Positions 1-49,000 of a stretch of DNA of 64,000 nucleotides are shown piece after piece. The stretch's first letter is position 1, and each line of letters starts with the position of its first letter. Both the position numbers and the translations under genes were made by a program. The notes below the pieces were generated by a model that was not told where the DNA came from, did no database searches, and was given only the letters and a program-made list of their open reading frames with translations. Source of the DNA: Clostridioides sp. ES-S-0054-01 (GTDB lineage: Bacteria; Bacillota; Clostridia; Peptostreptococcales; Peptostreptococcaceae). Location of the stretch: positions 155,001 to 219,000 of the forward strand of contig CP067346.1 in assembly GCA_021561035.1 (NCBI GenBank). Direction: 5' to 3'.

Positions 1-132
<132 letters not shown>

Positions 133-177
133 TTGCCTACTGTTTAATTTTGAGAGTTCTTTATGAACTTCATATAT

Positions 178-253: not shown

Positions 254-563
254 TTTAAGAGTATATTACCTAAATCTTTGATTTATCTAGTAGCCTCTTA
301 CATGCACTTATAGCTTAACTTTATACAAGCTTTGTGCGTTAGCACTTTAAGCAACAGAATAAACTGAACGCATGTGAAGTTTGTTTGTTGGCGACGTGCG
401 TTAGCACTTTAAGCAACGGGATTTATTCGTTGACGCTGTGCTTTAGCACTTTGAAAACTGCATATATATTTAGTGATATGACATCTAATTTGTAATATAT
501 AAAGCTGATAACTTTTTAAAATTATCAAGTTGATAGACTTTAATCTATCAAACCTTTTTAACT
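254..563 (+). other. 16S-23S spacer with short palindromic repeats and a boxA-like site
   Basis: No gene after tRNA-Ala. A 22-base unit containing the small palindrome GTGCGTTAGCAC occurs at 334-355 and again at 396-417, with a degenerate third copy at 438-452. The third copy runs into GCACTTTGAAAACTG (446-460), which resembles the boxA antitermination signal of Gram-positive rRNA leaders and spacers. The repeats probably form processing or antitermination hairpins. That role is inferred. Confidence 0.6.
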
Positions 564-3460
<2,897 letters not shown>

Positions 3461-3586
3461 TATTTATTTGATGTTCATTAATTAAGGTATATATGTAGTT
3501 TTTAGAGTGTTAACTCTAAAGAAACTAGTATTACTAGATTCTAAAAATTTACTAAGAACTTAATAGAAATATTAAGCATAAAGATT

Positions 3587-3704
<118 letters not shown>

Positions 3705-3711
3705 TAAATGT

Positions 3712-3786
3712 TCCAAGGTAGCTCAACGGTGGAGCAACCGGCTGTTAACCGGTAGGCTGTGGGTTCGAGCCCCACCCTTGGAGCCA
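3712..3786 (+). tRNA. tRNA-Asn (GTT)
   Basis: First of nine tRNAs directly after 5S. The acceptor TCCAAGG pairs with CCTTGGA, the anticodon is GTT, and CCA is encoded. It sits 7 bases from 5S, so it is probably cotranscribed with the rRNA. Confidence 0.96.
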
Positions 3787-3791
3787 AAAAA

Positions 3792-3877
3792 GCCGAAGTG
3801 GCGGAACTGGCAGACGCACAGGACTTAAAATCCTGCGGGACTTACCTCTCGTACCGGTTCGATTCCGGTCTTCGGCA
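3792..3877 (+). tRNA. tRNA-Leu (TAA)
   Basis: A class II tRNA with a long variable arm. The acceptor GCCGAAG pairs with CTTCGGC and the anticodon loop CTTAAAA gives TAA. The 3' CCA is not encoded. Confidence 0.95.
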
Positions 3878-3892
3878 CTTATGAAACAATAT

Positions 3893-3968
<76 letters not shown>

Positions 3969-3975
3969 TTAAAAT

Positions 3976-4050
3976 GGCTCGTTGGTCAAGAGGTTAAGAC
4001 ACCGCCCTTTCACGGCGGTAACAGGGGTTCAATTCCCCTACGAGTCACCA
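3976..4050 (+). tRNA. tRNA-Glu (TTC)
   Basis: The anticodon loop CTTTCAC between CCGCC and GGCGG gives TTC. The acceptor GGCTCGT pairs with ACGAGTC by Watson-Crick and G-U pairs. CCA is encoded. Confidence 0.95.
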
Positions 4051-4059
4051 ATTAAATAT

Positions 4060-4133
4060 GCGGGTGTAGCTCAATGGTAGAGTTCTGGCCTTCCAAGCCA
4101 GCTGTGAGGGTTCGATCCCCTTCACCCGCTCCA
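4060..4133 (+). tRNA. tRNA-Gly (TCC)
   Basis: The acceptor GCGGGTG pairs with CACCCGC. The anticodon loop CTTCCAA gives TCC, and CCA is encoded. A second glycine tRNA with anticodon GCC follows in the same cluster. Confidence 0.95.
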
Positions 4134-4138
4134 AAGAT

Positions 4139-4214
4139 GGGACCATAGCTCAGCTGGGAGAGCACCTGCCTTACAAGCAGGGGGTCACAGGTTCGAGCCC
4201 TGTTGGTCCCACCA
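4139..4214 (+). tRNA. tRNA-Val (TAC)
   Basis: The acceptor GGGACCA pairs with TGGTCCC. The anticodon loop CTTACAA gives TAC, and CCA is encoded. Confidence 0.95.
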
Positions 4215-4219
4215 TTTGC

Positions 4220-4296
4220 GGCCTGGTAGTTCAGTTGGTTAGAATGCCAGCCTGTCACGCTGGAGGTCGAGGGTTCGAGCCCCTTCCAGGTCGCCA
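4220..4296 (+). tRNA. tRNA-Asp (GTC)
   Basis: The acceptor GGCCTGG pairs with CCAGGTC. The anticodon loop CTGTCAC between CCAGC and GCTGG gives GTC, and CCA is encoded. Confidence 0.95.
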
Positions 4297-4306
4297 AATT
4301 AAATAA

Positions 4307-4381
4307 GCGGGAATAGTTCAGTGGTAGAGCGCAACCTTGCCAAGGTTGAAGTCGCGAGTTCGAATCTCGTTTCCCGCTCCA
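4307..4381 (+). tRNA. tRNA-Gly (GCC)
   Basis: The acceptor GCGGGAA pairs with TTCCCGC. The anticodon loop TTGCCAA gives GCC, and CCA is encoded. Confidence 0.95.
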
Positions 4382-4390
4382 TAATAATTT

Positions 4391-4464
<74 letters not shown>

Positions 4465-14600: not shown

Positions 14601-14639
14601 TTTATAAGGGTATTCTCAGATATAAACACTGAGGACACC

Positions 14640-14825
14640 TTTCTAAGCGCCAGAACTTAGTTATAGACATAATTATTAAGTAATATAGGAACTAAGTTGA
14701 CGAGGTCAGAGTTAATCGAATTGTCGGCGGATGCTCTGCGGTGTGTTTACCATCGAAAGACTTCTTTAAATAATAGGAGTAATCCTATGGACAAAGGGAA
14801 GCCAAAGTAAACTTATATGACCTAA
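14640..14825 (+). ncRNA. glmS ribozyme (GlcN6P-responsive self-cleaving riboswitch)
   Basis: The catalytic core is clear: AGCGCCAGAACTTAG (14646-14660), GACGAGGT (14699-14706), and CGGCGGATGCTCTGCGGT (14725-14742). The 3' pseudoknot domain runs to about 14825. By family knowledge cleavage occurs before the first G of GCGCC (14647). Glucosamine-6-phosphate triggers cleavage and decay of the glmS mRNA. The element ends about 40 bases before the glmS start. Confidence 0.95.
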
Positions 14826-26250: not shown

Positions 26251-26354
26251 ACCTTATCAAGAGAGGCTGAGGGATAGGCCCTGTGAAGCCCGGCAACCAC
26301 CCAAATGGGAAAAGGTGCTAATTCCTACAAGACAAAAGTCTTGAAAGATGAGGT
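26251..26354 (+). ncRNA. SAM-I (S-box) riboswitch aptamer
   Basis: P1 is ACCTTATC (26251-26258) pairing with GATGAGGT (26347-26354). The core GAGGCTGAGGGAT, GAAGCCCGGCAACC and GGTGCTAATTCC is the S-box signature. It binds S-adenosylmethionine and lies upstream of metK, so it gives end-product control. Confidence 0.97.
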
Positions 26355-31585: not shown

Positions 31586-32368
31586 ATGAGAATATGCAAT
31601 GATAATTTTATTAAGAGTTTTAAAAATATGATTAATAAATGTCTGGATTTTATATATCCTGAGAATATAAGTTGCATAATTTGTGATAAATCCATAAAGA
31701 AAACAAATACATATTCAATATGTAAAAGCTGTTTTAAAGAAATGAATTTTATACAGGATGGTTGCATGAAGTGTGGAAAGCCAATAATACGTCATTCAAT
31801 CGAAAAAGAGTTTGTTGAAGAGTGTAGCTATTGTTTTAATAAAGATTTTTATTTTGACAAATCAATATCCTGCATTGAATACAATGATGTAACCAAAAAG
31901 ATAGTTTTAGGGATGAAATATAATCAAAAAACATTTATGGCTAAGTATATAGCTCAGATAATGAAAGAAAAATTGTATTTAGAAAACATAAAATTTGATT
32001 ATATATTATTTGTTCCACTTCATAAAAAAAGACTAAATAAAAGAGGTTTTAATCAGGCACAAAAAATAGCATTTAATTTAAGTAAAATGATAAATATTCC
32101 ATTATTGGATTGTATAAGTAGAAAAAAGTATACAAGAATGCTATATAAATTAAACAAAAAGGAACGAAAAGAAGAACTAAAAAATGTATTTGTTGTTAAA
32201 GAAAATATTAAATTAATAAATAATAAAAATATACTTTTAATAGATGATATATTTACTACTGGTTTTACAACAAATGAAATTTCTAAACTTTTAAAGTTAT
32301 CTGGTGTTAATAAGGTCTTTGTATTGACTTTACTTACAAAAGCAAACGATAATTATGTTATGGAATAA
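31586..32368 (+). CDS. comF: ComF-family phosphoribosyltransferase-like protein
   Basis: A 260-residue homologue of ComFC, a competence-associated protein. N-terminal zinc-type cysteines: CIICDKSI and CKSCF, then CMKCG and CSYC. The C-terminal phosphoribosyltransferase domain has LFVPLHKKRLNKRGFNQAQ and the PRPP loop NILLIDDIFTTGFT near residue 220. The role may be in DNA uptake or recombination. It starts 2 bases after recD2 and has no strong binding site, so translational coupling is likely. In many clostridia comF lies next to raiA/hpf; here hpf is 8 kb away. Confidence 0.88.
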   Translation: MRICNDNFIKSFKNMINKCLDFIYPENISCIICDKSIKKTNTYSICKSCFKEMNFIQDGCMKCGKPIIRHSIEKEFVEECSYCFNKDFYFDKSISCIEYNDVTKKIVLGMKYNQKTFMAKYIAQIMKEKLYLENIKFDYILFVPLHKKRLNKRGFNQAQKIAFNLSKMINIPLLDCISRKKYTRMLYKLNKKERKEELKNVFVVKENIKLINNKNILLIDDIFTTGFTTNEISKLLKLSGVNKVFVLTLLTKANDNYVME

Positions 32369-32377
32369 TCTTATATA

Positions 32378-32406
32378 TTGACAATTCTAATTTAAAATAT
32401 TAAAAT
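32378..32406 (+). promoter_or_regulatory. strong promoter of the comF-linked structured RNA
   Basis: TTGACA (32378-32383), exactly 17 bases, then TAAAAT (32401-32406), starting 10 bases after the comF stop. The predicted start near 32413 coincides with the base of the first RNA helix. Confidence 0.8.
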
Positions 32407-32412
32407 GGATAA

Positions 32413-32630
32413 GTGATATTTAGGTCTGTGGTTGAAAGTCCAAGCCAGTCGCAGGCAAAGGGATCCACGTAAGTTAACACTAAAAATTGGGTTAATGATC
32501 ATGGTGCGGCTTAGAAGTAAGACCTACCGATAATAAAATCGAGAGAGAGTAGTAGTGCGGCGAACCCAAGCGAACCCTCCAGTAGGCGAGTGTGGGGTCA
32601 AAAACCAGGTCAGCTAAATATCATATTAAA
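32413..32630 (+). ncRNA. structured noncoding RNA, probable raiA-motif RNA
   Basis: About 210 bases, much richer in G+C than the flanks, without a usable reading frame. The ends pair perfectly: TGATATTTAG (32414-32423) with CTAAATATCA (32614-32623). Inside are a TTAAC/GTTAA hairpin (32474-32495), GTGG/CCAC pairing (32428-32431 with 32465-32468), a TAGGTCT/AGACCTA pairing that competes with the outer helix, and GTGCGGC twice (32504, 32555). It has its own promoter and terminator. raiA-motif RNAs occur in clostridia next to comFC or raiA, which fits this location; the family assignment is my inference. Bacterial RNase P, tmRNA and cobalamin riboswitch cores were looked for and do not fit. Confidence 0.65.
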
Positions 32631-32632
32631 AG

Positions 32633-32669
32633 AGAGCTAGCATAATACCTTTATGTATAGCTCTTTTTT
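32633..32669 (+). terminator. terminator of the structured RNA
   Basis: AGAGCTA-GCATA pairs with TATGT-A-TAGCTCT, followed by TTTTT. It ends the RNA about 40 bases before the PTS regulator gene. Confidence 0.85.
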
Positions 32670-32672
32670 ACA

Positions 32673-32678
32673 TATAAT
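32673..32678 (+). promoter_or_regulatory. possible -10 box of the PTS regulator gene
   Basis: TATAAT just after the terminator of the structured RNA. The region 17 bases upstream (TTTATG) is a poor -35 box. The regulator may use this weak promoter, or readthrough from the strong RNA promoter. Confidence 0.3.
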
Positions 32679-32711
32679 AAATTTAGGTTGAGTCATAAAG
32701 AGGTGATATGT

Positions 32712-34616
32712 TTGAATAAAAGGCAAGAAAATTTATTAACAACATTGCTATTAAAAGAAGAGTTTATAAATGTCAATGAGATTGCCAATGATTTTGAGTG
32801 TTCGGAAAGGACAATAAGAAATGATTGCAAATATATTGACGAATGGTTATCTACTTTTTGTAATGCTTATATTAAAAGAAAACCTAATATAGGAATTAAA
32901 TTTAGTGGAGATGATACAGATAAAATACTGGTAAATCAGAAGTTACGAGGTGAAGTTAAAAGAGTAAATAGTGAGCTTCATAAGCAAGTTGAGATATTAA
33001 ATTTAATACTTTGTAATAATAAAAAAGTTACTTTAAATGATTTATCGAATAAGTTGTATATAAATAAAAATATTGTCAGAGAAGAAATAAGTAAATTATC
33101 AGTGGCATTAAATAATTATAATCTAAATGTCTCAACTAAAAAAGGTAGTGGTATATATATTGAAGGGGATGAGAAAGACATAAGGATAATGTTAGTATCA
33201 TTCTTATTTAAATACATAGATAGATACAGGTTAAACATAGATGAAATAGAATATTTCCATATAGTAGATATAATAATTGTCAAAAACATAATGTCTACTA
33301 TAGAGGATAATATGGAGATAAGACTTACAGATATATCATTTAAGCAATTGATGTTATTTTTTCTTATAAACATAATACGAATAAGGCTGGGAAACTCTTT
33401 AAAAGTAAAAAATGCTAAGAAAGAACTTAAACTAAAAATGCTTATCTTAGGTATAGAAGATGAGCTAAAATCTAATTTATCCATAGCATTAAATTATGAA
33501 GAAAAATTATTTATAGAATCTTTAATATTTGGTATGAATAAACAAATAAATAGTAGTAATACTAAAAAATCATTATATCTAAATGAAGAATTAGTAAATT
33601 ATACAAAAAAAATTATAAGTTTAGTATCGGAAGAATCAGGAATAAATTTCAATAATGATATATTACTTTATGAGCAATTAATATGTCATTTGAATGTTAC
33701 AATGCACCAAATGAAAAGTAATGTTTACTTAGAAAATCCACTTTTAGATAATATAAAGACTAAATTTTGCTTTTTATTTACAGTAATATCAAGTTCAATA
33801 GAAATTGAATTAAAAGGTAAAAAAATAACTGAAGATGAAATCGGCTATCTTACACTTCACTTTCAAACCTCTCTAGAAAGAAAGTACAATAAAAAGGAAT
33901 CAAATAAAAAAGCGAGTATTGTATGTCCATTTAGTTTTGGAGTAAGTATGCTATTAAAAGTAAAAATAGAAAAGAGATTTAATAACATAGAAATTATTGA
34001 AACATTAAGAGAGGAAGATTTAAAAAGAGATAACTTTAATAAGACAATAGATTTTATAATTGCATTTCAAGAGTATGAGAATGTTCAAAAGCCAATTTTT
34101 ATAACAACACCATTATTTACTGATGAGGATGAGAATAAACTCAAAGATTTTACAAACAAAATAAAAGAAAAAGATACTTCATATAAGCTTATGAACAGAT
34201 TAATGATGTCTGATTATTTAATAAGGGAGTTAGAGCATGATGATATTTATGAAGCTATAACATATTTAACTAATTTATTAATTGAAAAACATTATGCAGA
34301 AAAAGAGTATTTACAATCTATTATAACAAGAGAAAAGTCATACCCAACCAATGTTGGGAAAGGAATACTATTCCCTCATGGAGATATGAAATATATAAAG
34401 CAATCTGTTCTATGTTTTGCAAGGTTAAAAACACCAATAAAAATTAGAAATGGAAAGGATATAAAGTTTATACTTTTATTAGCTTATAAAAAGGATGATG
34501 ATAGAAAAATATTTAGAGAGTTATTTAAAGAAATATCTAATCTAACAGAAGATGAAAATATGCTAGATATTTTAAGTAAATGTGACATTGAAAAAGTAAA
34601 AGATATTCTTATATAA
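32712..34616 (+). CDS. PRD-containing transcriptional activator of a PTS operon (LicR/MtlR type)
   Basis: A 634-residue regulator. An N-terminal winged helix (NVNEIANDFECSERTIRNDCKYI, about 20-42) is followed by a second HTH of Mga type (VTLNDLSNKLYINKNIVREEISKL). Two PTS regulation domains come next; the second is clear (NPLLDNIKTKF ... EDEIGYLTLHFQTSLERKY). Then there is an EIIB-like domain with a cysteine (VCPFSFGVSMLL) and an EIIA-like domain whose histidine is in ILFPHGDMKY. Phosphorylation at these sites should link activity to PTS transport. Start: TTG 32712 with AGAGGTGAT 6 bases upstream; the in-frame TTG at 32688 lacks a site. It controls, by position, the operon that follows. Confidence 0.88.
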   Translation: MNKRQENLLTTLLLKEEFINVNEIANDFECSERTIRNDCKYIDEWLSTFCNAYIKRKPNIGIKFSGDDTDKILVNQKLRGEVKRVNSELHKQVEILNLILCNNKKVTLNDLSNKLYINKNIVREEISKLSVALNNYNLNVSTKKGSGIYIEGDEKDIRIMLVSFLFKYIDRYRLNIDEIEYFHIVDIIIVKNIMSTIEDNMEIRLTDISFKQLMLFFLINIIRIRLGNSLKVKNAKKELKLKMLILGIEDELKSNLSIALNYEEKLFIESLIFGMNKQINSSNTKKSLYLNEELVNYTKKIISLVSEESGINFNNDILLYEQLICHLNVTMHQMKSNVYLENPLLDNIKTKFCFLFTVISSSIEIELKGKKITEDEIGYLTLHFQTSLERKYNKKESNKKASIVCPFSFGVSMLLKVKIEKRFNNIEIIETLREEDLKRDNFNKTIDFIIAFQEYENVQKPIFITTPLFTDEDENKLKDFTNKIKEKDTSYKLMNRLMMSDYLIRELEHDDIYEAITYLTNLLIEKHYAEKEYLQSIITREKSYPTNVGKGILFPHGDMKYIKQSVLCFARLKTPIKIRNGKDIKFILLLAYKKDDDRKIFRELFKEISNLTEDENMLDILSKCDIEKVKDILI

Positions 34617-34638
34617 AATTCATAGTGAACTATGGATA

Positions 34639-34690
34639 AGCACAAAATTTTCCATGTGATGGAAAAAGTTGTGCATGTTTTTTTGTTTTT
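34639..34690 (+). terminator. terminator between regulator and PTS genes
   Basis: GCACAA..TTTTCCAT pairs with ATGGAAAA..TTGTGC around GTG, followed by ATGTTTTTTTGTTTTT. The regulator and structural genes are therefore largely separate transcripts, or attenuation occurs here. Confidence 0.85.
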
Positions 34691-34755
34691 GTGAGGTATT
34701 ATATATTTGTAAGGTATAAATAAGCTAAAAAAGAGAAGCAACTTAGGAGGAAAAA

Positions 34756-35064
34756 ATGGAAGAAATAGTTTTAAAGATTATAATTCATGCTGGAAATGCA
34801 AAATCTATACTTTATGAAGCACTTGACTGTGCAAAGGAAAACGATTTTAAAAAAGCAGATGAATTAATTGAAAGTGCAAATGAAGAAATCTTAAAAGCAC
34901 ATAAAGTACAAACTGAACTTATACAAAAGGAAGCTGGAGGAGATAAGTCAGATATATCTATCTTATTGATTCACTCTCAAGACCATTTAATGACTTGTAT
35001 GAGTGAGAGAAATCTTATAAAAGAAATGATTATGTTAAGAAAAGAAATTCAAAAATTAAAATAA
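34756..35064 (+). CDS. PTS lactose/cellobiose-type EIIA
   Basis: Phosphocarrier of 102 residues, a helical bundle of the Lac/Chb class. It accepts phosphate from HPr on His73 in LLIHSQDHLMT; Asp76 is the metal-binding residue seen in family structures. The length is normal. The ribosome binding site is GGAGG. It is the first gene of the transport set IIA-IIB-IIC. Confidence 0.93.
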   Translation: MEEIVLKIIIHAGNAKSILYEALDCAKENDFKKADELIESANEEILKAHKVQTELIQKEAGGDKSDISILLIHSQDHLMTCMSERNLIKEMIMLRKEIQKLK

Positions 35065-35087
35065 AAAATTAAGGGGGATTTAAAAGA

Positions 35088-35414
35088 ATGAAAAGAAAAA
35101 TATATTTGTTTTGTAGCTTTGGAATGTCAACAAGTTTACTTGCAGAGAAAATGCAGAAGGTAGCAGATAAACACAATTTACCAATAGAAGTAGAGGCATT
35201 TCCAATAGCAGAGATTGATAAAATAGTTGAAGAAAAAAATCCAGATTGTATATTATTAGGACCACAAGTTAAATACATGTTAAAGGAATTAAAACCAAAG
35301 TTTGAAGCTCAAGGTAAACTTATAGATATAATCAATGAGGTTGATTATGGAACTATGAATGGGGAAAAAGTACTAAAGGTCGCTATAAAGCTAATAAAAT
35401 CTAAACAAGCATAG
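35088..35414 (+). CDS. PTS lactose/cellobiose-type EIIB
   Basis: A 108-residue EIIB. The phosphorylated cysteine is Cys9 in LFCSFGMSTSLLA, the classic P-loop-like motif. It lies 23 bases after EIIA with AAGGGGG as binding site. It hands phosphate to the sugar during transport. Confidence 0.93.
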   Translation: MKRKIYLFCSFGMSTSLLAEKMQKVADKHNLPIEVEAFPIAEIDKIVEEKNPDCILLGPQVKYMLKELKPKFEAQGKLIDIINEVDYGTMNGEKVLKVAIKLIKSKQA

Positions 35415-35452
35415 AATTATAATAAAAAATAATGAGAGATGAGGGTGGATAG

Positions 35453-36787
35453 ATGAATAGATTGGAAAGAATACTTATGCCATTGGCTGAAAAAATAGGT
35501 AAAAATAAATTATTAATTGCAATTAGAGATGGTTTTTTAGTATCATCACCATTATTGATAATAGGTTCATTATTTTTATTAGTAGCAAATTTTCCTATAA
35601 AAGGCTGGAATGAATTTGTAGGTCAAATTTTTGGTCCAGATTGGGCTGTAAAATTGCAACAACCAACTGTAGCAACATTTGAAGTAATGACTTTACTTGC
35701 AGTTTTAGGAATTGGATATTCTTATGCAAAGCAAATAGATGTAGACCCAATAGCATCAGCAGCAGTTGCAATAGTTGCTTTTTTTATAGTAACACCATTT
35801 GTAATACCATATACACCAGAAGGAACAGAATCAGTATACATGGTAACAGGTATACCACTAGGATGGATGGGTTCTAAGGGAATGTTTGTAGGTATGATAA
35901 CAGCAATAACTTCTGTAAGATTATTTGGTGCAGTTGTAAAAAAAGGATGGACACTGAAAATGCCAGATGGAGTTCCTCCAACTGTATCAAAATCATTTGC
36001 AGCATTAATACCAAGTGCAATAGTTATGATAGTTTTCTTTTTAGTTAAGATAGCTTTTGAAGCTACGCCATATGGAAGTATACATGAATTTATATTTAAG
36101 TTTTTACAAATACCATTATTAAAATTAGGAAATACTTTAAGTGCTACAGCAATAGCTTACGTATTCTTACATCTATTCTGGTTCTTTGGAATAAATGGAA
36201 GTAGTGTTGTTGGGGCTGTGTATAATCCTATATTAAAAATTCTATCAGCTGAAAATTTAGCTGCTTTTCAAGCTGGTACAAAACTACCGAATATAATAAC
36301 TGCTCAATTTCAAGACATGTTTGCAACATTTGGTGGAGCAGGTAGTACATTATCATTAATTATAGCTATGTTATTAATATGTAAAAGTAAACGTATAAAG
36401 TCAATAGGAAAGTTGTCAATTTTACCAGGCATATTTGGTATAAATGAGCCATTGATATTTGGTCTACCAATAATGCTTAACCCAATACTATTGATACCGT
36501 TTGCATTAGTTCCAACAGTAAATATAATAATAGCTTATTTCTGCATGTCAACAGGATTAGTACCACTTACAAATGGAGTTCAGCTACCGTGGACGACTCC
36601 AATTATATTCTCTGGTTTTCTAACAACAGGATGGCAAGGTGCAGTTTTACAATTAGTACTTCTTATACTAGGAATATTTATGTATATACCATTTATAAAA
36701 ATGCTAGATAAACAATATTTGAAAGAAGAAAAATCAAATGTTGAAGAGGAAGATGATGATATATCTTTTGATGATTTAGTACTATAG
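35453..36787 (+). CDS. PTS lactose/cellobiose-type EIIC permease
   Basis: A 444-residue membrane permease with about ten hydrophobic segments. The motif ILPGIFGINEPLIFGLPIMLNPILLIP (about 322-348) is the substrate-binding signature of the class. The C-terminus is acidic (NVEEEDDDISFDD). Lac/Chb carriers take disaccharides and amino-sugar oligomers. The downstream glycosylasparaginase suggests a GlcNAc-containing or other glycosyl-asparagine substrate, which is inference. Confidence 0.92.
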   Translation: MNRLERILMPLAEKIGKNKLLIAIRDGFLVSSPLLIIGSLFLLVANFPIKGWNEFVGQIFGPDWAVKLQQPTVATFEVMTLLAVLGIGYSYAKQIDVDPIASAAVAIVAFFIVTPFVIPYTPEGTESVYMVTGIPLGWMGSKGMFVGMITAITSVRLFGAVVKKGWTLKMPDGVPPTVSKSFAALIPSAIVMIVFFLVKIAFEATPYGSIHEFIFKFLQIPLLKLGNTLSATAIAYVFLHLFWFFGINGSSVVGAVYNPILKILSAENLAAFQAGTKLPNIITAQFQDMFATFGGAGSTLSLIIAMLLICKSKRIKSIGKLSILPGIFGINEPLIFGLPIMLNPILLIPFALVPTVNIIIAYFCMSTGLVPLTNGVQLPWTTPIIFSGFLTTGWQGAVLQLVLLILGIFMYIPFIKMLDKQYLKEEKSNVEEEDDDISFDDLVL

Positions 36788-36797
36788 GGGGAAGATT

Positions 36798-37316
36798 ATG
36801 AAGAAAATAGTTATGATATTGGACCAAATACAAGCTGGGGCTGGAGGAAAAGAGAAAAGTAACATACCTCCTGCTGGAAAATCAAGCCCATTAGGACCAG
36901 GTGTAATGATGGAACCATTTTTAAAGGAATCTAAGGTAATAGCGACATTATTTTGTGGAGATGAATTTTTTGTAAATAATGAAGAAGAAGTAACAAACAA
37001 AATGATAGCTATGGTAAAAAAATTAAACCCTGATGTAGTAATCTGTGGACCAAGTTTTAATTATGAAAATTTTTCTAAGATGTCAGCGATAATATCTAAA
37101 AATATAAATGATAAGGCAGACATACCAGCTTTTGCAGCTATGTCAGAAGAAAATGTAGATGTGATAAACGAATATAAAAACGATATATGTATAGTTAAGA
37201 CTCCAAAAAAAGGTGGAATTGGTCTTAACGACTCATTAAATAACATATGTAAATTAGCGAAAGCAATGGCAAATAAAGAAGATATAACTTTGATGAAAGA
37301 AGACTTTTGTTATTGA
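36798..37316 (+). CDS. GrdB-like protein (glycine/sarcosine/betaine reductase component B family), stand-alone
   Basis: A 172-residue protein resembling a segment of reductase protein B: MILDQIQAGAGGKE, LGPGVMMEPFLKE, TLFCGDEFFVNNEEEV, LNPDVVICGPSFNYENF, FAAMSEENVDVI and KTPKKGGIGLN. True GrdB is about 435 residues and contains a selenocysteine site further on; nothing of that part, nor an in-frame TGA, is here. So it is either a trimmed subunit or a different enzyme in a sugar operon. It starts 10 bases after EIIC behind GGGGGAAG. The function is unknown; handling of the released amino acid or glycosyl-amine is possible. Confidence 0.7.
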   Translation: MKKIVMILDQIQAGAGGKEKSNIPPAGKSSPLGPGVMMEPFLKESKVIATLFCGDEFFVNNEEEVTNKMIAMVKKLNPDVVICGPSFNYENFSKMSAIISKNINDKADIPAFAAMSEENVDVINEYKNDICIVKTPKKGGIGLNDSLNNICKLAKAMANKEDITLMKEDFCY

Positions 37317-37412
37317 TTTGAGTATTAAATATTAACAAGTTTGAATGTTTATACTGTTTATGATAAATATACATTATTAAAATCTATACAATTTAAGGAG
37401 GGGAATTTTAAC

Positions 37413-38372
37413 ATGTGGGGAATGATAGCGACATGGAGAATGGCCCTAGAAGGAATAACTGAGGCATCAGAACATTTAGAAAAAGGCATGGAAGCAGGTG
37501 ATGCTGTGGAGCTTGCTGTAAGAAGAGTTGAAGATTATCCATTCTATAAATCGGTTGGATATGGTGGACTTCCAAATGAAAACTGCGAGGTAGAACTTGA
37601 TGCTGCATTTATGGATGGTAACACGTTAGATATTGGAGCAGTTGCTGGTATAAAAGATTATTCTAATCCTGTCAGTATAGCTAGGAAGTTAAGTTATGAG
37701 AAGGTAAATAACTTCTTAGTTGGAATAGGTGCTGAAGAGTATGCTCATAAAAATGGATTTGAAAGAAAAAATATGTTGACTGATAGAGCAAAGTTACATT
37801 ATAAAAAGAGAAAACAAGAAACTTTAGACAAAGGATTAAGCCCATATGCTGGTCATGATACTGTTGGTATGATATCTTTAGACAAAAATGGAAAGATGTG
37901 TGTAGCTACATCAACAAGTGGATTATTTATGAAGAAGAGAGGTAGAATAGGAGATTCTGCACTATCTGGTTCAGGATTCTATGTTGATAGTAATATAGGA
38001 GGAGCTACAGCTACTGGTTTGGGAGAAGATTTAATGAAGGGATGTATATCTTATGAGATAGTTAGACTTATGAAAGAAGGAAAACATCCACAAGAAGCGT
38101 GTGATATAGCAGTAAATGAACTTGATAAACAACTTATCAAAAGAAGAGGAAAAGCTGGTGATTTATCATTAGTTGCCATGAATAATAAGGGTGAATGGGG
38201 AGTAGCTACAAATATAGCTGATTTTACTTTTTCAGTAGTAACTAGAGAAGAGTCCCCTACTGTATATATTTCAAATAGAGTAAATGGAAAAACTATACAT
38301 AAGGTTATATCAAATGAGTGGATGGAAGCATATGAAGCTAGAATAAAAGCACCAATAGAAGTAAGTGAATAA
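37413..38372 (+). CDS. glycosylasparaginase (N4-(beta-N-acetylglucosaminyl)-L-asparaginase)
   Basis: Ntn hydrolase that splits the bond between sugar and asparagine in glycosyl-asparagine. The 319-residue precursor should cleave itself before Thr150 in GHDTVGMISLD; this threonine then becomes the nucleophile. TSTSGLFMKKRGRIGDSALSGSGFYVD and GGATATGLGEDLMKGC are family signatures. No signal peptide is seen, so it acts in the cytosol on imported substrate, unlike lysosomal or periplasmic relatives. I start it at ATG 37413 (MWGMIATW) behind AAGGAGGGG; the in-frame start at 37341 has no binding site. Confidence 0.9.
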   Translation: MWGMIATWRMALEGITEASEHLEKGMEAGDAVELAVRRVEDYPFYKSVGYGGLPNENCEVELDAAFMDGNTLDIGAVAGIKDYSNPVSIARKLSYEKVNNFLVGIGAEEYAHKNGFERKNMLTDRAKLHYKKRKQETLDKGLSPYAGHDTVGMISLDKNGKMCVATSTSGLFMKKRGRIGDSALSGSGFYVDSNIGGATATGLGEDLMKGCISYEIVRLMKEGKHPQEACDIAVNELDKQLIKRRGKAGDLSLVAMNNKGEWGVATNIADFTFSVVTREESPTVYISNRVNGKTIHKVISNEWMEAYEARIKAPIEVSE

Positions 38373-38420
38373 AGTAGTAGTTACATAATTAGAATAGAGT
38401 TTTATAATGAGGAGATTTTT

Positions 38421-39473
38421 ATGAATATCATAAGTAATAAAATAGATGAATTAAAAGAAGATTTATTAAGTGATATTATAGATATTGTAAAAATACCTAG
38501 TGTCAAAGGGGAGTCAGAAGATGGCTTCCCTTTTGGCGAAAAAATAGGGGAAGCACTTAATAAAGCATTAGAAATATCAGAAAAATTGGGGTTTAAGATT
38601 AGAAATTTGGATAATTATATTGGTTATGCAGAACATGGAGATAGCGAAGATTATGTTTGTGTAATTGGGCATGTGGATGTTGTACATGAAGGAGAAGGTT
38701 GGAAGTATAAGCCCTATAAGGGAGAAGAAACTAATGGAAGAATTTATGGAAGAGGAGTACTGGATAATAAAGGACCTATAATTTCTGCTTTATATGGATT
38801 ATATGCTATTAAAGAATTAAATTTAAAATTAGATAAAAAAGTTAGGATAATATTTGGTACAAATGAAGAAAGTGGATTTGAAGATATACCATATTATTTA
38901 AAAAAAGAAAAAGCTCCTGTTATGGGTTTTACACCGGATTGTAAGTATCCTGTTGTATATGGTGAAAAAGGTATGGCAAAGATTAGAATAAAAAGTAAAA
39001 ACAATTATGAAGAAGATACATTTTTAGGTTTTATAGAAAGTATGTCAGAAAATGTGCTTGTTACATATAAAGATTTAAATAAAGAAAATAATGATATTAT
39101 ATTGGATATAAAGGTAAAGTACGATTTTAGCTATAAACTAAAAGATGTGTTAGATGAAATAAAATCTAGCTTTCCAGATAATATAGAGATAGAGGTAATT
39201 TCTAATTTTAATCCTGTGTATTTTGATAAAGATAGTAATCTCATTAAAAAACTTCAGCTAGCTTATGAAAGGGTCACATCATTAGATGGAACTCCAGTAA
39301 CGACTAATGGAGGTACATATGCAAAAGTAATGCCAAATATAGTTCCATTTGGACCTTCATTTCCAGGACAAAAAGGAATAGCTCATAATCCTGATGAATA
39401 CATGGATATAGAAGATATAATATTAAATGCAAAGATATTTGCAAATGCAATATATGAATTGGCAAAGGAGTAG
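38421..39473 (+). CDS. M20-family metallopeptidase (PepV-like dipeptidase, short)
   Basis: Zinc peptidase of 350 residues. Metal-binding motifs: CVIGHVDVVHEGEGW (His and Asp), GRGVLDNKGP (bridging Asp) and FGTNEESGFEDI (catalytic Glu pair). The C-terminal HNPDEYMDIED gives the last His. PepV proteins are usually about 470 residues, so the lid domain is reduced. Inside this operon it may cleave dipeptides or other amide bonds left from glycopeptide breakdown. The ribosome binding site is GAGGAG. Confidence 0.85.
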   Translation: MNIISNKIDELKEDLLSDIIDIVKIPSVKGESEDGFPFGEKIGEALNKALEISEKLGFKIRNLDNYIGYAEHGDSEDYVCVIGHVDVVHEGEGWKYKPYKGEETNGRIYGRGVLDNKGPIISALYGLYAIKELNLKLDKKVRIIFGTNEESGFEDIPYYLKKEKAPVMGFTPDCKYPVVYGEKGMAKIRIKSKNNYEEDTFLGFIESMSENVLVTYKDLNKENNDIILDIKVKYDFSYKLKDVLDEIKSSFPDNIEIEVISNFNPVYFDKDSNLIKKLQLAYERVTSLDGTPVTTNGGTYAKVMPNIVPFGPSFPGQKGIAHNPDEYMDIEDIILNAKIFANAIYELAKE

Positions 39474-39475
39474 TT

Positions 39476-40150
39476 ATGTTAGAGATAATAGGAATGTCAG
39501 TAGAAGACGCTAAAATTATAGAAGATTGTGGTGCAGATAGAATAGAGCTAGTTAGTGCTTTAACTGAAGGTGGGTTGACACCAAGTTTTGGTCTTATAGA
39601 AAGGGTTGTTAACAGTGTAAAGATACCTGTGAACGTAATGATAAGACATCATGCGAAAAGTTTTGTATACAGTAAAGAAGATATAAGTATAATGCAAAAA
39701 GATATAAGTGTGATTAAAGAGATTGGTGCTAATGGAGTTGTATTTGGTGTATTAGATAAAAACAATAAAATAGATGAAAAAAATCTAAATATTTTATTAA
39801 GATGTTGTGATAATCTTGATGTTACATTTCATAGAGCTATAGATGAATCAAATACAACGGATAGTGTTAAAATTTTGAAGGATTATGATAAGATTACAAA
39901 TATACTAACATCAGGGGGGAAGGGAAGTATAGTTGATAATATACAAATAATAAAGGATATGATGTTTAGTTCTAATCACATAAAAATTCTTTTAGGTGGA
40001 GGGCTTAATTTAGATAATATAGAAAAGATAAAAGACTCAACTAAAGCAAGTAATTTTCACTTTGGTACAGCTATTAGAATGAATAACAGTCCTTTTGAAG
40101 ATATAGATAGACAAAAGCTTAAACAACTCGTAAATATAATTTCAAGATAG
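39476..40150 (+). CDS. cutC: CutC-family TIM-barrel protein
   Basis: A 224-residue member of the family named for copper homeostasis in Escherichia coli; the copper role is disputed and not supported by this setting. Typical blocks are CGADRIELVSALTEGGLTPSFGLIE (residues 18-42), VMIRHHAKSFVYS, DVTFHRAID and LTSGGKGSIVDN. It starts 2 bases after the peptidase and closes the PTS-glycosylasparaginase operon, so it may be an enzyme of the same pathway. No clear terminator follows. Confidence 0.87.
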   Translation: MLEIIGMSVEDAKIIEDCGADRIELVSALTEGGLTPSFGLIERVVNSVKIPVNVMIRHHAKSFVYSKEDISIMQKDISVIKEIGANGVVFGVLDKNNKIDEKNLNILLRCCDNLDVTFHRAIDESNTTDSVKILKDYDKITNILTSGGKGSIVDNIQIIKDMMFSSNHIKILLGGGLNLDNIEKIKDSTKASNFHFGTAIRMNNSPFEDIDRQKLKQLVNIISR

Positions 40151-40642: not shown

Positions 40643-40695
40643 ATTATTAAAGTATAAATTTTCTTATACTGGCATAATTGAAGGGAGATGTACTT

Positions 40696-41247
40696 ATGAA
40701 CATAATTATATCTGGAAAACAAATCGAATTAACTGATGCAATAAAAAATAAAATTGAAAGCAAACTAAGCAAGTTAGATAATTACATTCATCCAGACACT
40801 GATGTAAAAGTTACAGTAAGTGCTAGAAAAGCAAGACAAAAAATAGAAGTAACAATAGCTACTGTAAATGGACCTATAATTAGAGCAGAAGATATGCAGG
40901 AAAATTTATACACAGCCATAGATGTTGTATATGATAAATTAAGTAAACAATTAAAAAAATATAAAAAGAGACTACAAGATAAACATAAAGACAACAAGAG
41001 TATAAGATTCCAAGACGCAGAGATAAATCTAGCTGACGAGCAAGAGGATTATGGGGATGAAAATCAAGAGTTAGTAATTCAAAGACGTAAAAAATTTAGT
41101 GTTAAGCCAATGAGCGAAGAGGAAGCTGTATTACAGATGGAGTTAATAGGACATGATTTTTATATGTTTAAGAATATAGATTCAGATGAAATAGCAGTAG
41201 TTTATAAGCGTAATAATGGTGGATATGGTATAATAGAACATGAATAA
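40696..41247 (+). CDS. hpf: long-form ribosome hibernation promoting factor
   Basis: Binds 30S subunits and dimerises ribosomes into inactive 100S particles in stationary phase. The 183-residue protein has the S30AE domain (residues 1-100, NIIISGKQIELTDAIKNKIESKL) and, after a linker, the C-terminal dimerisation domain (about 130-183, VIQRRKKFSVKPMSEEEAVLQMELIGHDFYMF). The start is ATG 40696 behind AAGGGAG; an in-frame start at 40678 would cover that site. The gene is also known as raiA in Firmicutes. Confidence 0.95.
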   Translation: MNIIISGKQIELTDAIKNKIESKLSKLDNYIHPDTDVKVTVSARKARQKIEVTIATVNGPIIRAEDMQENLYTAIDVVYDKLSKQLKKYKKRLQDKHKDNKSIRFQDAEINLADEQEDYGDENQELVIQRRKKFSVKPMSEEEAVLQMELIGHDFYMFKNIDSDEIAVVYKRNNGGYGIIEHE

Positions 41248-41269
41248 AGCAATTTAGATTTAATCATAT

Positions 41270-41304
41270 TAGCTATCGATAAATAAATTATCGATAGCTT
41301 TTTA
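41270..41304 (+). terminator. terminator after hpf
   Basis: AGCTATCGATAA pairs with TTATCGATAGCT around ATAAA, followed by TTTT. Confidence 0.88.
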
Positions 41305-41378
41305 AATTAATATTAAAAGTATAGTTTTTATGGTAAAATGAATAATAGTACAATAAAGAACGAGGAGAGATGTAAAAT

Positions 41379-44054
41379 ATGAGCTTTATGGATAATTTAT
41401 TCAACATGGCAGATAAAAAAGAATTAAAAAAGTTCAATAAAACTGTTGATATAATAGATTCATTAGAACCTAAGTTTGAATCTATGGCAGACTCGGAACT
41501 TAAAAATATGACAAATATATTTAAAGAGAGATTAGCAAATGGTGAAAGTATAGATGATATACTTCCAGAAGCTTTTGCAGTAGTTAGAGAAGTTTCTAAG
41601 AGAGTGTTAGGACTTAGACACTACAGAGTTCAAATGATTGGAGGTATAGTGCTACATCAAGGAAGAATAGCCGAGATGAAAACAGGTGAAGGTAAAACCT
41701 TGGTTGCAACTGCTCCTGTTTATTTGAATGCGCTTACTGGAAAAGGTGTACATGTTGTAACAGTAAATGATTACCTTGCAAAACGTGATAGAGACCAAAT
41801 GGCAAAAATCTATGAGTTTTTAGGAATGAGTGTAGGTGTTATTATACATGGTCAAAACCCAAAAGTTAGAAAAGAACAATATGATTGTGATATAACTTAT
41901 GGTACAAATAATGAGTATGGATTTGACTACTTAAAGGACAATATGGTAATACACAAAGAGCAAAGAGTTCAAAGAGGATTAAATTATGCCATAGTGGATG
42001 AGGTTGACTCTATACTAATAGATGAGGCTAGAACACCGCTTATCATATCTGGACCAGGAGACAAATCAACTCATTTATATTCAGATGCAAATACATTTGT
42101 TTTAACTTTAAAACCAGATGATTATGAATTAGAAGAAAAAGATAAGGCTGTATCTCTAACAGCATCAGGTATACAAAAAGCAGAAGTATATTTTAATGTT
42201 GATAATATAACAGATATATCTCATACAGAGTTATATCATCATATAAATCAGGCTTTAAGGGCACATGTAATAATGAAGAAAGATGTTGATTATGTTGCTA
42301 AAGATGGAGAAATAGTAATAGTAGATGAGTTCACAGGTAGACTTATGTTTGGTAGAAGATATTCAGAAGGTTTACATCAAGCAATAGAAGCTAAAGAAGG
42401 TCTTAAAATACAAAGAGAGTCTAAAACACTAGCTACTGTAACATTCCAAAACTACTTTAGAATGTACAAAAAACTTTCTGGTATGACTGGTACAGCAAAA
42501 ACAGAAGAAGAAGAGTTTAAAGCAATCTATAAAATGGATGTTTTTCAAGTACCTACCAATAAACTTATGATAAGGGAAGACTTACCAGACTGTGTATACA
42601 AAAGTGAAATAGGTAAGTTTAATGCTGTGGCTCAAGAAATAATTGAAAGACATAAGGTAAATCAACCAATACTTGTAGGTACAGTATCAATAGAAAAGTC
42701 AGAATTATTATCACAAATACTAAAGAAAAAAGGCATAAAACATGAAGTGTTAAATGCTAAGCATCATGATAAAGAGGCAGAAATAATAGCACAAGCTGGT
42801 AGACTTGGAGCTGTTACGATAGCTACTAATATGGCTGGTCGTGGTACAGATATAGTTCTAGGTGGAAACCCAGATTTCTTAACTAAGAGAGAAATGAGAA
42901 GAAATGGATTTAAAGAAGAAATAGTAAATAGAGTAGATACTCCAATAGAAGGGATACCTGTAAAAGGGAATGAAACTCTATTTGAAGCTAGAGCAGAGTA
43001 TGAAAAACTATTTGAAAAGTTTAAACAACAAACACAAGAAGAACAAAAAAAAGTTGTAGAAGCAGGTGGACTTGCTATAATTGGTACAGAGAGACACGAA
43101 TCTCGAAGAATAGATAACCAGTTGAGAGGTCGTGCTGGTCGTCAAGGTGACCCAGGTAGTTCAAGATTCTATATAGGTCTTGATGATGACCTTATGAGAT
43201 TGTTTGGAAGTGATAGAATATCTGGAATTGTAGATAAAATAGGTCTTGAAGAAGATATGCCAATAGAACATAGAATATTATCTAAATCTATTGAAGGAGC
43301 ACAAAAGAAAGTCGAAGGCAAAAACTTTGGTATAAGAAAGCATGTACTTCAATACGATGATGTTATGAATAAACAAAGAGAAATAATATATGCAGAAAGA
43401 AAACGTGTATTAGAGGGTGAAGATTTACAAGAACAAATACAATCAATGACTCATTCTATAATAGAAGAGGCAGTTACTCTTTATACACAAGATAAAGGAT
43501 TTGATGAAGAAGGATTCAAAGAACATATGTATAATCTGTTCTTACCAAAAGGTAGTATAGAAATACCAGAAATAGAAAAACTTAATCCAGTTGAAATAAC
43601 GGAAAAAGTTTATGAAATAGCTATGAAGATATATACTTCAAAAGAAGAACAAGTTGGCTATGAGAGAATGAGAGAGGTTGAGAGAGTAATCTTACTTCAA
43701 GCTGTTGATAACCATTGGATAGACCATATAGATGCTATGGACCAATTGCGTCAAGGTATTGGTCTTCGTGCTATAGGTCAACAAGACCCAGTTATTGCTT
43801 ATAAAATGGAAGGTTTTGATATGTTTGATGAAATGAATAAACATATCAAGGAAGATACTGTAAGGTATTTATTCAATATAACAATAGAAACTCCAGTGGA
43901 AAGAAAAGCTGTTGTAGATGTTGAAAATCTATCTTCTCCATCAGATGGAACACTTCCAACAAGTAAAACTGTTAAAAAAGATGAAAAAGTTGGAAGAAAT
44001 GACTTATGTCCTTGTGGAAGTGGTAAAAAATATAAAAACTGTTGTGGAAGATAA
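41379..44054 (+). CDS. secA: preprotein translocase ATPase SecA
   Basis: Motor that pushes secretory proteins through SecYEG. The 891-residue protein has Walker [12 protein letters not shown] (about residue 105) and a DEAD-like [18 protein letters not shown] near 210. A preprotein-binding domain, the second helicase half ([14 protein letters not shown]), a helical scaffold and the C-terminal zinc tail [16 protein letters not shown] follow. It is the housekeeping SecA by size and completeness. C. difficile also has a SecA2 elsewhere. prfB starts 14 bases downstream. Confidence 0.97.
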
Positions 44055-44068
44055 TCTTGGAGGATTAA

Positions 44069-45176
44069 ATGTTAAAGTTACAAGAGTACAGACATAGTAT
44101 GGAGCAGATAGCTTCAAATTTAGAAGAATTGAGGGTTTCTCTTTGACATAGCTTCATTGATGGAAGAGATACAAATTAATGAAGAAAAGATGAATAAACA
44201 AGACTTTTGGGACGATAATGAAGTCGCTCAAAGAGTACTTCAAGAAAATAAATCTTTAAAAGAGACACTAGAAGAATATGAAAGCTTAAAAAACTTATTA
44301 GAAGATATAGAAGTATTGATTGAAATAGGTCTAGAAGAAGAGGATGATTCTGTAGAAAGAGATATAGAAAAGTCTATAGAATCAATAGAAGAAAAATTAT
44401 CTGAAATGAAAATAAAAACTCTTTTAAATGGAGAGTATGATAAAAATAATGCTATATTATCTATAAACGCTGGTACTGGTGGTTTGGATGCTCAAGATTG
44501 GGCTCAGATGCTTTTGAGAATGTATATAAGATGGTCAGAAAGTAAGGGATATAAAGTTAAGCTATTAGATATAATATCAGACCCTGAAGCGGGAATAAAG
44601 ACAGCTACAATTCTTGTAGAAGGAACAAATGCTTATGGGTATTTAAAGAGTGAAAAAGGAGTTCATAGGCTGGTAAGAATATCTCCATTTGACCCATCAG
44701 GAAAAAGACATACCTCATTTGCATCTATAGATGTAACACCAGAGCTAGATGAGAATATAGAAGTAGAAATTAATCCATCAGATTTAAAGATAGACACATA
44801 TAGAGCATCTGGAGCTGGAGGTCAACATGTAAATACGACTGATTCAGCAGTTAGAATAACACATATTCCTACAGGTGTAGTAGTCCAGTGTCAAAATGAA
44901 AGGTCTCAACATCTAAATAAGGATAGAGCTATGAGACTTTTAATGGCAAAATTGATAGAATTAAAAGAGTTAGAACAAAAGGAAAAAATAGAAGATATAC
45001 AAGGAAAATACTCACAAATAACTTGGGGTAGCCAAATTAGGTCATATGTTTTTCAACCATATAAGTTGGTTAAAGACCATAGGACAAATGCTGAGTTTGG
45101 AAATGTAGATAGTGTAATGAATGGAAATATAGACTTGTTTATTAATGAATACTTAAAAATGAATAAAACAGTTTAA
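44069..45176 (+). CDS. prfB: peptide chain release factor 2, with programmed +1 frameshift
   Basis: Releases peptides at UGA and UAA. A first frame starts at ATG 44069 (AGGAGG-like GGAGG upstream) and reaches TGA at 44144-44146 after 25 codons. The slip site is CTT TGA C (44141-44147), with AGGG just upstream as internal Shine-Dalgarno. Shifting by +1 joins it to the main frame, giving 368 residues. ISPFDPSGKRHTSFAS contains the RF2-specific SPF tripeptide, and ASGAGGQHVN holds the GGQ catalytic motif. The frameshift is the conserved autoregulation of RF2. A gene call from 44157 alone would miss the N-terminus. Confidence 0.96.
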
Positions 45177-48778: not shown

Positions 48779-48840
48779 CTTGACAATTATTAAAAAATTA
48801 ACTAATATGAGGATGTAAGGAAAATTAAAAATCAAAGAAG

Positions 48841-48950
48841 ATCTTCGGGGCAGGGTGAAATTCCCTACCGGCGGTATAGCCCGCGAACTACTTATGTAGT
48901 TGATTTGGTGAGATTCCAAAGCCGACAGTAAAGTCTGGATGGGAGAAGAT
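48841..48950 (+). ncRNA. FMN riboswitch (RFN element)
   Basis: P1 is ATCTTC (48841-48846) pairing with GAAGAT (48945-48950). The conserved core GGGGCAGGGTGAAATTCCC, TACCGGCGGT, AGCCCGCGA, GATTTGGTGAGATTCC and GCCGACAGT is complete. It binds FMN and controls the riboflavin transporter downstream. Confidence 0.97.
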
Positions 48951-49000
48951 ATTTATGGAATATAAATAAGTTTATTTTAGTTTGTTTAAACTATATCCAT

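What the first reader, a model, noticed from the sequence alone, without database searches (positions are those of the whole stretch)
32378..32669. Stand-alone structured RNA after comF, probably a raiA-motif RNA
Seen: a consensus promoter (TTGACA-N17-TAAAAT), a perfect 10-bp helix joining the ends, several internal helices, G+C content well above the flanks, and an intrinsic terminator. Together they define a separate transcript of about 250 bases with no reading frame. Known: raiA-motif RNAs occur in clostridia beside comFC or raiA, and as I recall they have been linked to sporulation and aggregation. Inferred: this is that family. Its biochemical function is still open.
Basis: partly seen in the sequence, partly recalled or inferred. 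Interest (0 to 1): 0.8.

Follow-up and report, generated by a model that had tools for sequence, protein, structure and literature searches.

The report
A known clostridial RNA called ModT
The stretch makes ModT (the raiA-motif RNA), a known folded RNA that helps clostridia stop growing on time; what is new here is only its gene neighbourhood, because an inserted sugar-uptake operon separates it from the ribosome-hibernation gene that often follows it.

Summary
The observation and the reading are both right. Window 32415-32622 (+) matches Rfam RF03072 (raiA) end to end at 184.3 bits, against a gathering score of 101.3, once in the genome. All 56 base pairs of the published fold, both pseudoknots included, can form here. 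Across 63 sequences they covary strongly. A promoter matching 11 of 12 positions and a terminator predict a transcript of about 257-260 nt. That fits the 260-nt ModT(L) reported for C. difficile (PMC11706538). The genome is a Clostridioides lineage; five other Clostridioides loci differ at 0-3 of 208 core positions. The RNA is therefore already known; its biochemical activity remains open in the papers I could read. New detail: the paper says that in C. difficile a PTS antiterminator stands downstream instead of raiA. In this window the hibernation-factor gene, secA and prfB still follow, about 8 kb on, behind a PTS/peptidase operon; five relatives outside the genus have ComFC-ModT-HPF-SecA without it. 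Side lead: in 19 of 63 sampled loci ModT directly precedes a zinc-finger gene, which this genome lacks.

The parts
32378..32406 (+). Promoter of SigA type, TTGACA-N17-TAAAAT
   Evidence: 11/12 match; shuffle and family controls; both hexamers unchanged in 5 other Clostridioides loci
32413..32672 (+). Inferred transcript, ModT(L) form, about 257-260 nt
   Evidence: From about 7 nt after the -10 box to the end of the T-run; matches the published 260-nt isoform of C. difficile. Start and end not measured here
32415..32622 (+). raiA motif / ModT core RNA
   Evidence: RF03072, model 1-209, 184.3 bits, gathering 101.3; single copy in genome
32414..32423 (+). P1a, 5' strand of the 10-bp terminal helix
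   Evidence: pairs with 32614-32623; 11 of the 12 pairs of the block P1a+P1b (9 + 3 core pairs) have changes on both sides across 63 sequences
32614..32623 (+). P1a, 3' strand
32447..32453 (+). P3 loop, 5' half of pseudoknot pk-1 (AGUCGCA)
   Evidence: 7 standard pairs here; 6 of 7 pairs with changes on both sides, 97.3% of cells paired
32505..32511 (+). 3' half of pk-1 (UGCGGCU)
32502..32503 (+). pk-2, 5' half (UG), pairing with 32599-32600 (CA)
   Evidence: both pairs standard here; weakly tested: 89.7% of cells paired, one pair with a two-sided change in one row
32438..32464 (+). P3a/P3b stem-loop that carries pk-1
   Evidence: 100% of cells paired; 3 of 4 P3a pairs with changes on both sides; P3b nearly invariant
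32465..32468 (+). P4 5' strand (CCAC), pairing with 32592-32595
   Evidence: standard pairs; all four pairs invariant in 63 sequences, so not tested by covariation
32473..32496 (+). P5 stem-loop
   Evidence: 6 of 6 pairs with changes on both sides
32523..32586 (+). P6-P7-P8 domain (variant 2 of the published fold); AGUA/GAA bases fit an E-loop in P8
   Evidence: 3 of 5 P6, 3 of 4 P7 and 3 of 4 P8-base pairs with changes on both sides; E-loop assignment is my inference from the text of PMC11751092
32627..32670 (+). Intrinsic terminator hairpin, T-run 32664-32669
   Evidence: predicted fold; kept with few changes in 5 other Clostridioides loci
31586..32368 (+). ComFC-like gene upstream
   Evidence: Pfam DZR_2 and Pribosyltran; the name ComFC-like from PMC11477304
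32688..34616 (+). PRD-domain PTS regulator downstream; the ribosome-binding site suggests a TTG start near 32713
   Evidence: Pfam PRD, PTS_EIIA_2, Mga, HTH_11; a TATAAT at 32673-32678, conserved in 6 of 6 Clostridioides sequences, may be its own -10 box
34756..40150 (+). Rest of the inserted operon: PTS IIA, IIB, IIC, then peptidase-like and CutC-like genes
   Evidence: IIA, IIB, IIC by Pfam; the others named by recall from their sequence
40678..41247 (+). Ribosome hibernation factor gene (HPF/RaiA), about 8 kb from ModT
   Evidence: PF16321, E 3.1e-26, at G000:C1:196068-196232 = window 41068-41232; frame
41379..45176 (+). secA and prfB after HPF
   Evidence: frames; same order in relatives; names by recall

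Best explanation
This is modT, the raiA-motif noncoding RNA gene, in a Clostridioides lineage. SigA RNA polymerase makes a stand-alone, very stable RNA that folds into the compact structure of helices P1 and P3-P8 with pseudoknots pk-1 and pk-2 and works in trans. The step I think most likely, and infer only: ModT binds protein(s) during exponential growth and helps wind down the translation machinery (ribosome and tRNA pool) on entry to stationary phase. Effects on c-di-GMP, sporulation and aggregation would then follow downstream. Identity and fold are shown by computation here. The trans action and phenotypes are published for C. difficile and C. acetobutylicum. The molecular step is my guess.
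For: Identity. Fold: 95.5% of 3422 cells paired, 38 of 56 pairs with changes on both sides, 0 of 500 shuffles as high on any of five measures, 30-43% paired when partners are slid (I assembled the fold from the published description on the window row, so slid controls favour it). All 56 pairs standard in the window. Conservation: core differs at 0, 1, 1, 2 and 3 of 208 positions in five Clostridioides loci; the changes at paired positions keep a standard pair, while ComFC, RecD2 and PTS-regulator DNA in the four of these loci compared are 90-97% identical. Own promoter and terminator. Trans action, abundance, DMS signs of protein binding and raised tRNA and 5S levels in the deletion: PMC11706538. 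A hibernation-factor gene in the same cluster in 41 of 63 loci: 39 within the flanks held, plus the window and L021 at about 8 kb. Not sporulation-specific: 17 of 63 ModT genomes have no Spo0A_C hit (several of the 17 are close relatives).
Against: No molecular activity has been shown in the papers I could read. The HPF link is weak: the same neighbourhood exists without ModT. Among the 30 best-scoring HPF loci, 5 of 21 from ModT-negative genomes have ComFC, FlgN or the zinc-finger gene upstream (5 of 9 from ModT-positive ones). In L125, from the family with most ModT loci in the sample (f39, 11 of 63), ComFC-HPF-SecA stands with none of five ModT key words between. Three Peptostreptococcus loci have ModT and SecA but no HPF hit between. 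Higher tRNA and 5S in the mutant may only reflect longer growth. The paper itself judges synteny a poor guide.
Confidence: 0.5

Rival explanations
1. ModT is a cis-acting riboswitch or leader for the gene downstream, here the PTS operon; Rfam types RF03072 as Cis-reg; riboswitch.
For: The RNA core ends 66-91 nt before a PTS regulator gene and Rfam calls it cis-regulatory. In 19 of 63 relatives it sits directly before a zinc-finger gene, in 9 of them with the start codon 37-39 nt after P1 and no terminator found by a simple scan.
Against: Published complementation in trans. A terminator lies between, and the PTS operon has a conserved TATAAT of its own. The PTS operon follows ModT in 6 of 6 Clostridioides loci only, while three Romboutsia loci keep a 95-97% identical RNA in front of HPF instead.
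Confidence: 0.05
2. ModT is a trans-acting ligand sensor: a small molecule (c-di-GMP or a metabolite) changes its fold and so its partner binding.
For: Complex riboswitch-like fold; DMS reactivity shifts between growth phases.
Against: No ligand reported in the papers read. In the cryo-EM and SHAPE study the RNA alone is already compact and mostly unreactive.
Confidence: 0.2
3. ModT is a ribozyme acting on tRNA or rRNA precursors.
For: Complex conserved fold; tRNA and 5S levels change in the mutant; raised as a speculation by the authors.
Against: No cleavage shown in the papers read; 75 of 90 tRNA loci up together fits a growth effect at least as well.
Confidence: 0.06
4. ModT is an ordinary antisense sRNA with an Hfq-type seed.
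For: Stand-alone, abundant, terminated RNA.
Against: Conservation is spread over the whole fold, pseudoknots included; no binding to Hfq or KhpB reported.
Confidence: 0.04

Closest known systems
ModT of Clostridioides difficile 630 (raiA motif RNA; PMC11706538)
   Same: Same genus, same ComFC and PTS neighbours, SigA promoter, and a predicted transcript of about 260 nt.
   Different: Strain 630 itself was not aligned; five other Clostridioides loci differ from the window at 0-3 of 208 core positions.
Rfam RF03072 raiA RNA
   Same: Full-length match, 184.3 bits.
   Different: Nothing of note. The Rfam structure is reported to differ in P3/P4 from the best-fit model; the pairing used here follows the cryo-EM description.
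C. acetobutylicum raiA RNA, cryo-EM (PMC11751092; PMC12286853, PDB 9ELY)
   Same: P1, P3-P8, pk-1, pk-2, variant 2 with an apparent E-loop.
   Different: The window has a separate downstream terminator; C. acetobutylicum is reported to lack the long isoform.

Membership tests
raiA motif RNA / ModT (RF03072) | Covariance-model match above the curated cut-off | tested here: met
   184.3 vs 101.3 bits, model 1-209 of 209
raiA motif RNA / ModT (RF03072) | Helices P1, P3-P8 of the published fold | tested here: met
   47 nested pairs all standard in the window; the nested helices covary except P3b and P4, which are nearly or wholly invariant. P2 is reported absent from C. difficile too
raiA motif RNA / ModT (RF03072) | Pseudoknot pk-1 (7 pairs) | tested here: met
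   7 standard pairs; 6 of 7 with two-sided changes; 12 of 63 rows break the outermost A-U
raiA motif RNA / ModT (RF03072) | Pseudoknot pk-2 (2 pairs) | tested here: inconclusive
   Both pairs can form here; little variation, 11 of 63 rows break the G-C pair and 2 the U-A pair
raiA motif RNA / ModT (RF03072) | Neighbouring comFC upstream and raiA gene downstream (common, not required) | tested here: met
   ComFC ends 46 nt before the core; HPF/RaiA gene on the same strand, but about 8 kb away behind an insert
raiA motif RNA / ModT (RF03072) | Stand-alone transcript with its own promoter | not testable with these tools
   Signals present; no expression data for this strain; published for C. difficile
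raiA motif RNA / ModT (RF03072) | Action in trans on growth transition and sporulation | not testable with these tools
   Published for other strains
cis-acting riboswitch | Controls the gene directly downstream | tested here: inconclusive
   Terminator and a separate -10 box intervene; the operon is absent behind ModT in the outgroups with enough sequence; published trans complementation argues against

The most novel reading that the evidence does not exclude
ModT has two lives. In about a third of the sampled clostridial loci (19 of 63) it is the 5' leader of a small double zinc-finger protein (PF13451). In 9 of these the start codon lies at a fixed 37-39 nt after P1; in the other 10 about 115 nt intervene, and an RBS-masking pairing appears in 8 of the 9 that were folded. 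The protein could be ModT's own RNA-binding partner. The free-standing, terminated RNA of Clostridioides, whose genome lacks that gene, would then be a released trans form of what was once a cis-controlled RNA-protein unit.
Probability: 0.12. Interest if true: 0.75.

Novelty: already known. Interest (0 to 1): 0.28.

Why it matters
ModT is a deeply conserved, highly structured bacterial RNA without a known biochemical activity in the papers I could read. This case adds no new class. It refines one point that bears on interpretation: next to modT in Clostridioides the hibernation-factor gene was, on this evidence, not replaced but pushed about 8 kb away by an inserted operon, so the order comFC-modT-HPF-secA-prfB is probably ancestral there too. 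It also shows that ModT persists in relatives without a Spo0A hit and is missing from loci with similar neighbours, which gives natural comparisons for finding its role.

Tried and rejected
Rejected: another RNA family at the site (none at gathering score); a coding gene; a sporulation-dedicated role (Spo0A_C in 46 of 63 ModT genomes against 195 of 230 without ModT, counted by eye from the lists: no positive association); reading HPF adjacency as strong proof of function (control); P1 acting as the terminator stem in the window (no T-run after P1; possible in 9 of 63 loci). The zinc-finger gene cannot be the partner in this genome as far as PF13451 can tell: no match in G000. Nine zinc-finger loci from ModT-negative genomes gave no raiA hit at E up to 1, nor did twenty more at E up to 5, so a hidden divergent ModT there is not supported.

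Limits. The simple terminator scan missed terminators with bulges, the window's included, so its classes (22 hairpin, 9 P1 plus T-run, 18 zinc-finger leader, 14 none, of 63) understate hairpins; L030 belongs to the zinc-finger class. Flanks are mostly 1.5-2 kb and cut short in a few loci (L041, L063, L053, L036, L025, L027), so neighbour counts are lower bounds. One search used stricter filters, so 63 of 293 may be an undercount; all genomes are from one class of bacteria. Of the 20 named loci, one search shows 4 Clostridioides, 5 with ComFC-ModT-HPF-SecA, 2 Geosporobacter with HPF 1.6-1.8 kb downstream and no ComFC hit, 3 Peptostreptococcus with SecA but no HPF hit, 1 (L076) with neither in 3.2 kb, and 5 (L066, L067, L068, L071, L082) cut off too soon to tell. 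The 30 loci are the best-scoring HPF hits, not a random draw. The RBS pairings were read by eye from single-sequence folds without shuffles, and L030 was not folded. Gene names SecA, PrfB, RecD2, FlgN, PepV-like and CutC-like and the E-loop assignment rest on recall or on the text cited, not on a family search. Soares et al. 2024 could not be read; its synteny figures are known to me only through PMC11706538. Section 9 of PMC11706538 (c-di-GMP results) was not read; that link is taken from its abstract and discussion. Whether the displaced HPF gene or the zinc-finger leader is already in print was checked only and by the terms in one paper (hpf 0, zinc 0 occurrences in its main text).

Full report
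WHAT IS THERE. Rfam's raiA model (RF03072) matches window 32415-32622 on the + strand over its whole length with 184.3 bits (gathering score 101.3, E 5.4e-47), and no other family reaches its gathering score there. The genome, one contig of 3,925,358 bases, holds this one copy.

WHICH ORGANISM. A ModT-derived pattern drew 20 named genome records, four of them titled Clostridioides difficile. RecD2, ComFC and PTS-regulator DNA of the window is 90-97% identical to those four; ComFC and RecD2 are 67-84% identical (partial alignments included) to the other records with a match. The window is therefore from the genus Clostridioides, distinct from each of those four; no tool named the strain.

THE FOLD. 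I placed the helices of the published cryo-EM fold (PMC11751092: abstract and section 10 read) on the window; pairings that the text does not spell out base by base were read from the sequences. All 56 pairs are standard pairs in the window. On an alignment of all 63 hits, one row each, 95.5% of 3422 cells pair, 38 of 56 pairs have changes on both sides, and 0 of 500 shuffles reach the observed values; sliding the partners by 1-3 columns drops pairing to 30-43%. pk-1 is well supported (6 of 7 pairs with two-sided changes, though 12 rows break its outermost pair), P4 is invariant and so untested, and pk-2 is only weakly tested (11 rows break one of its two pairs, 2 the other). Within Clostridioides the core differs from the window at 0, 1, 1, 2 and 3 positions in five loci, and the changes that fall in helices keep a pair.

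TRANSCRIPT. PMC11706538 (abstract, introduction, results sections 6, 7 and 10 in full, first parts of section 8 and of the discussion, and passages read) reports a SigA promoter and a 260-nt long and a 215-nt short isoform in C. difficile 630. Counting from 32413, 260 nt ends at 32672, just past the T-run, and 215 nt ends at 32627, just past P1. No T-run follows P1 in any of the six Clostridioides sequences, so I infer that the short form is trimmed and not terminated there. In 9 of 63 sampled loci a T-rich stretch does follow P1 directly, so in those P1 may double as the terminator stem.

NEIGHBOURHOOD. ComFC ends 46 nt before the core. Downstream come a PRD-domain PTS regulator and PTS IIA, IIB and IIC genes, the same neighbours as in C. 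difficile (PMC11477304, passages read). The introduction of PMC11706538 says the C. difficile downstream gene is a PTS antiterminator instead of raiA. In this window the hibernation-factor gene is nevertheless there: PF16321 matches at window 41068-41232, in the frame 40678-41247, followed by secA and prfB. In five relatives (Romboutsia L069, L070, L077; uncultured Peptostreptococcaceae L073, L075) the order is ComFC-ModT-HPF-SecA with about 0.4-1.1 kb between ModT and HPF. In all six Clostridioides loci the PTS regulator follows ModT, and in the two that reach far enough (window, L096) HPF, SecA and PrfB follow the insert. The simplest reading is an operon inserted between ModT and HPF in the Clostridioides ancestor. 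Three Peptostreptococcus loci (L064, L074, L080) have SecA but no HPF hit there; two Geosporobacter loci have HPF further off and no ComFC hit; L076 has neither in 3.2 kb; five named loci are cut off too soon.

HOW FAR THE NEIGHBOURHOOD SPEAKS. In the 63 loci, within the flanks held (mostly 1.5-2 kb), HPF lies downstream in 39 (38 on the same strand), ComFC upstream in 30, a FlgN-like gene upstream in 16, and a PF13451 zinc-finger gene downstream in 19. As a control I took the 30 best-scoring HPF loci of a draw of 69 genomes made without regard to ModT: 5 of 9 in ModT-positive genomes and 5 of 21 in ModT-negative genomes have ComFC, FlgN or the zinc-finger gene upstream, and in those five ModT-negative loci the stretch between that gene and HPF contained none of five ModT key words. 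The gene cluster thus exists without the RNA, and the association is suggestive at best.

FUNCTION. Published work, not mine: deletion delays entry into stationary phase, lowers sporulation in a way linked to c-di-GMP, raises tRNA and 5S levels, and is complemented in trans. PMC12286853 (passages read) solved the RNA as a monomer and says two independent studies did too; PMC11751092 is one of them. My sample agrees that sporulation is not the core role: Spo0A_C is missing from 17 of 63 ModT-positive genomes, and is no commoner with ModT (46 of 63) than without (195 of 230) (counted by eye, relatedness not corrected for). I commit to a protein-bound RNA that helps wind down translation capacity at the growth transition, as an inference with modest confidence.

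SIDE LEAD. In 19 of 63 loci ModT directly precedes a small double zinc-finger gene (PF13451), in 9 of them with the start codon 37-39 nt after P1 and no terminator found by a simple scan; in the other 10 (family f22) about 115 nt intervene, and in 8 of the 9 folded a GGGATT-type stretch at the start region pairs with an upstream AATCCC-type stretch (all but L016; read by eye). This pairing was not tested against shuffles. In 29 zinc-finger loci of genomes without a ModT hit, AATCC occurs within 150 nt upstream in only 6; 6 of the 29 instead have a degenerate tRNA-like stretch before the gene (28.7-37.3 bits to the tRNA model, gathering score 29; none called by ARAGORN), and 5 have a tRNA-Gly gene nearby. 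This genome has no PF13451 hit.

VERDICT. The element is a known RNA in a genus where it has been studied; the displaced HPF gene and the leader arrangement in other families are the only points I would add.

Noticed in passing
window 32688-40150, with 40678-45176: A PTS/peptidase/CutC-like operon sits between modT and HPF-secA-prfB in Clostridioides; five outgroup loci have ComFC-modT-HPF-SecA without it.
   Followed up: yes
L027, L029, L040, L049, L052-L056 and the ten f22 loci (L015-L017, L023, L030, L036, L041-L044): ModT is the 5' leader of a PF13451 double zinc-finger gene in 19 of 63 loci, at a fixed 37-39 nt in 9; f22 loci show a possible RBS-masking pairing.
   Followed up: partly
L130, L131, L137, L139, L145, L146 (upstream of the PF13451 gene): In ModT-negative genomes the same zinc-finger gene can be preceded by a degenerate tRNA-like stretch; sometimes a tRNA-Gly(ccc) gene lies nearby (L093, L134, L142-L144).
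   Followed up: partly
L128, L133, L141 (400 nt upstream of the PF13451 gene): A long leader, alike in L128 and L133, precedes the zinc-finger gene and has no convincing Rfam match.
   Followed up: no
L002, L007, L011, L024-L026, L033, L057, L062: A T-rich stretch directly follows P1, so the ModT terminal helix may double as an intrinsic terminator.
   Followed up: partly
   Followed up: partly
window 14635-14814, 26251-26354, 48837-48954: glmS ribozyme, SAM riboswitch and FMN riboswitch, all above their gathering scores.
   Followed up: no
window 1-4464: rRNA genes (16S end, 23S, 5S) and ten tRNA genes in a cluster.
   Followed up: no
G000:C1:2499454-2499621: A second hibernation-factor gene (PF16321) elsewhere in the genome.
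   Followed up: no
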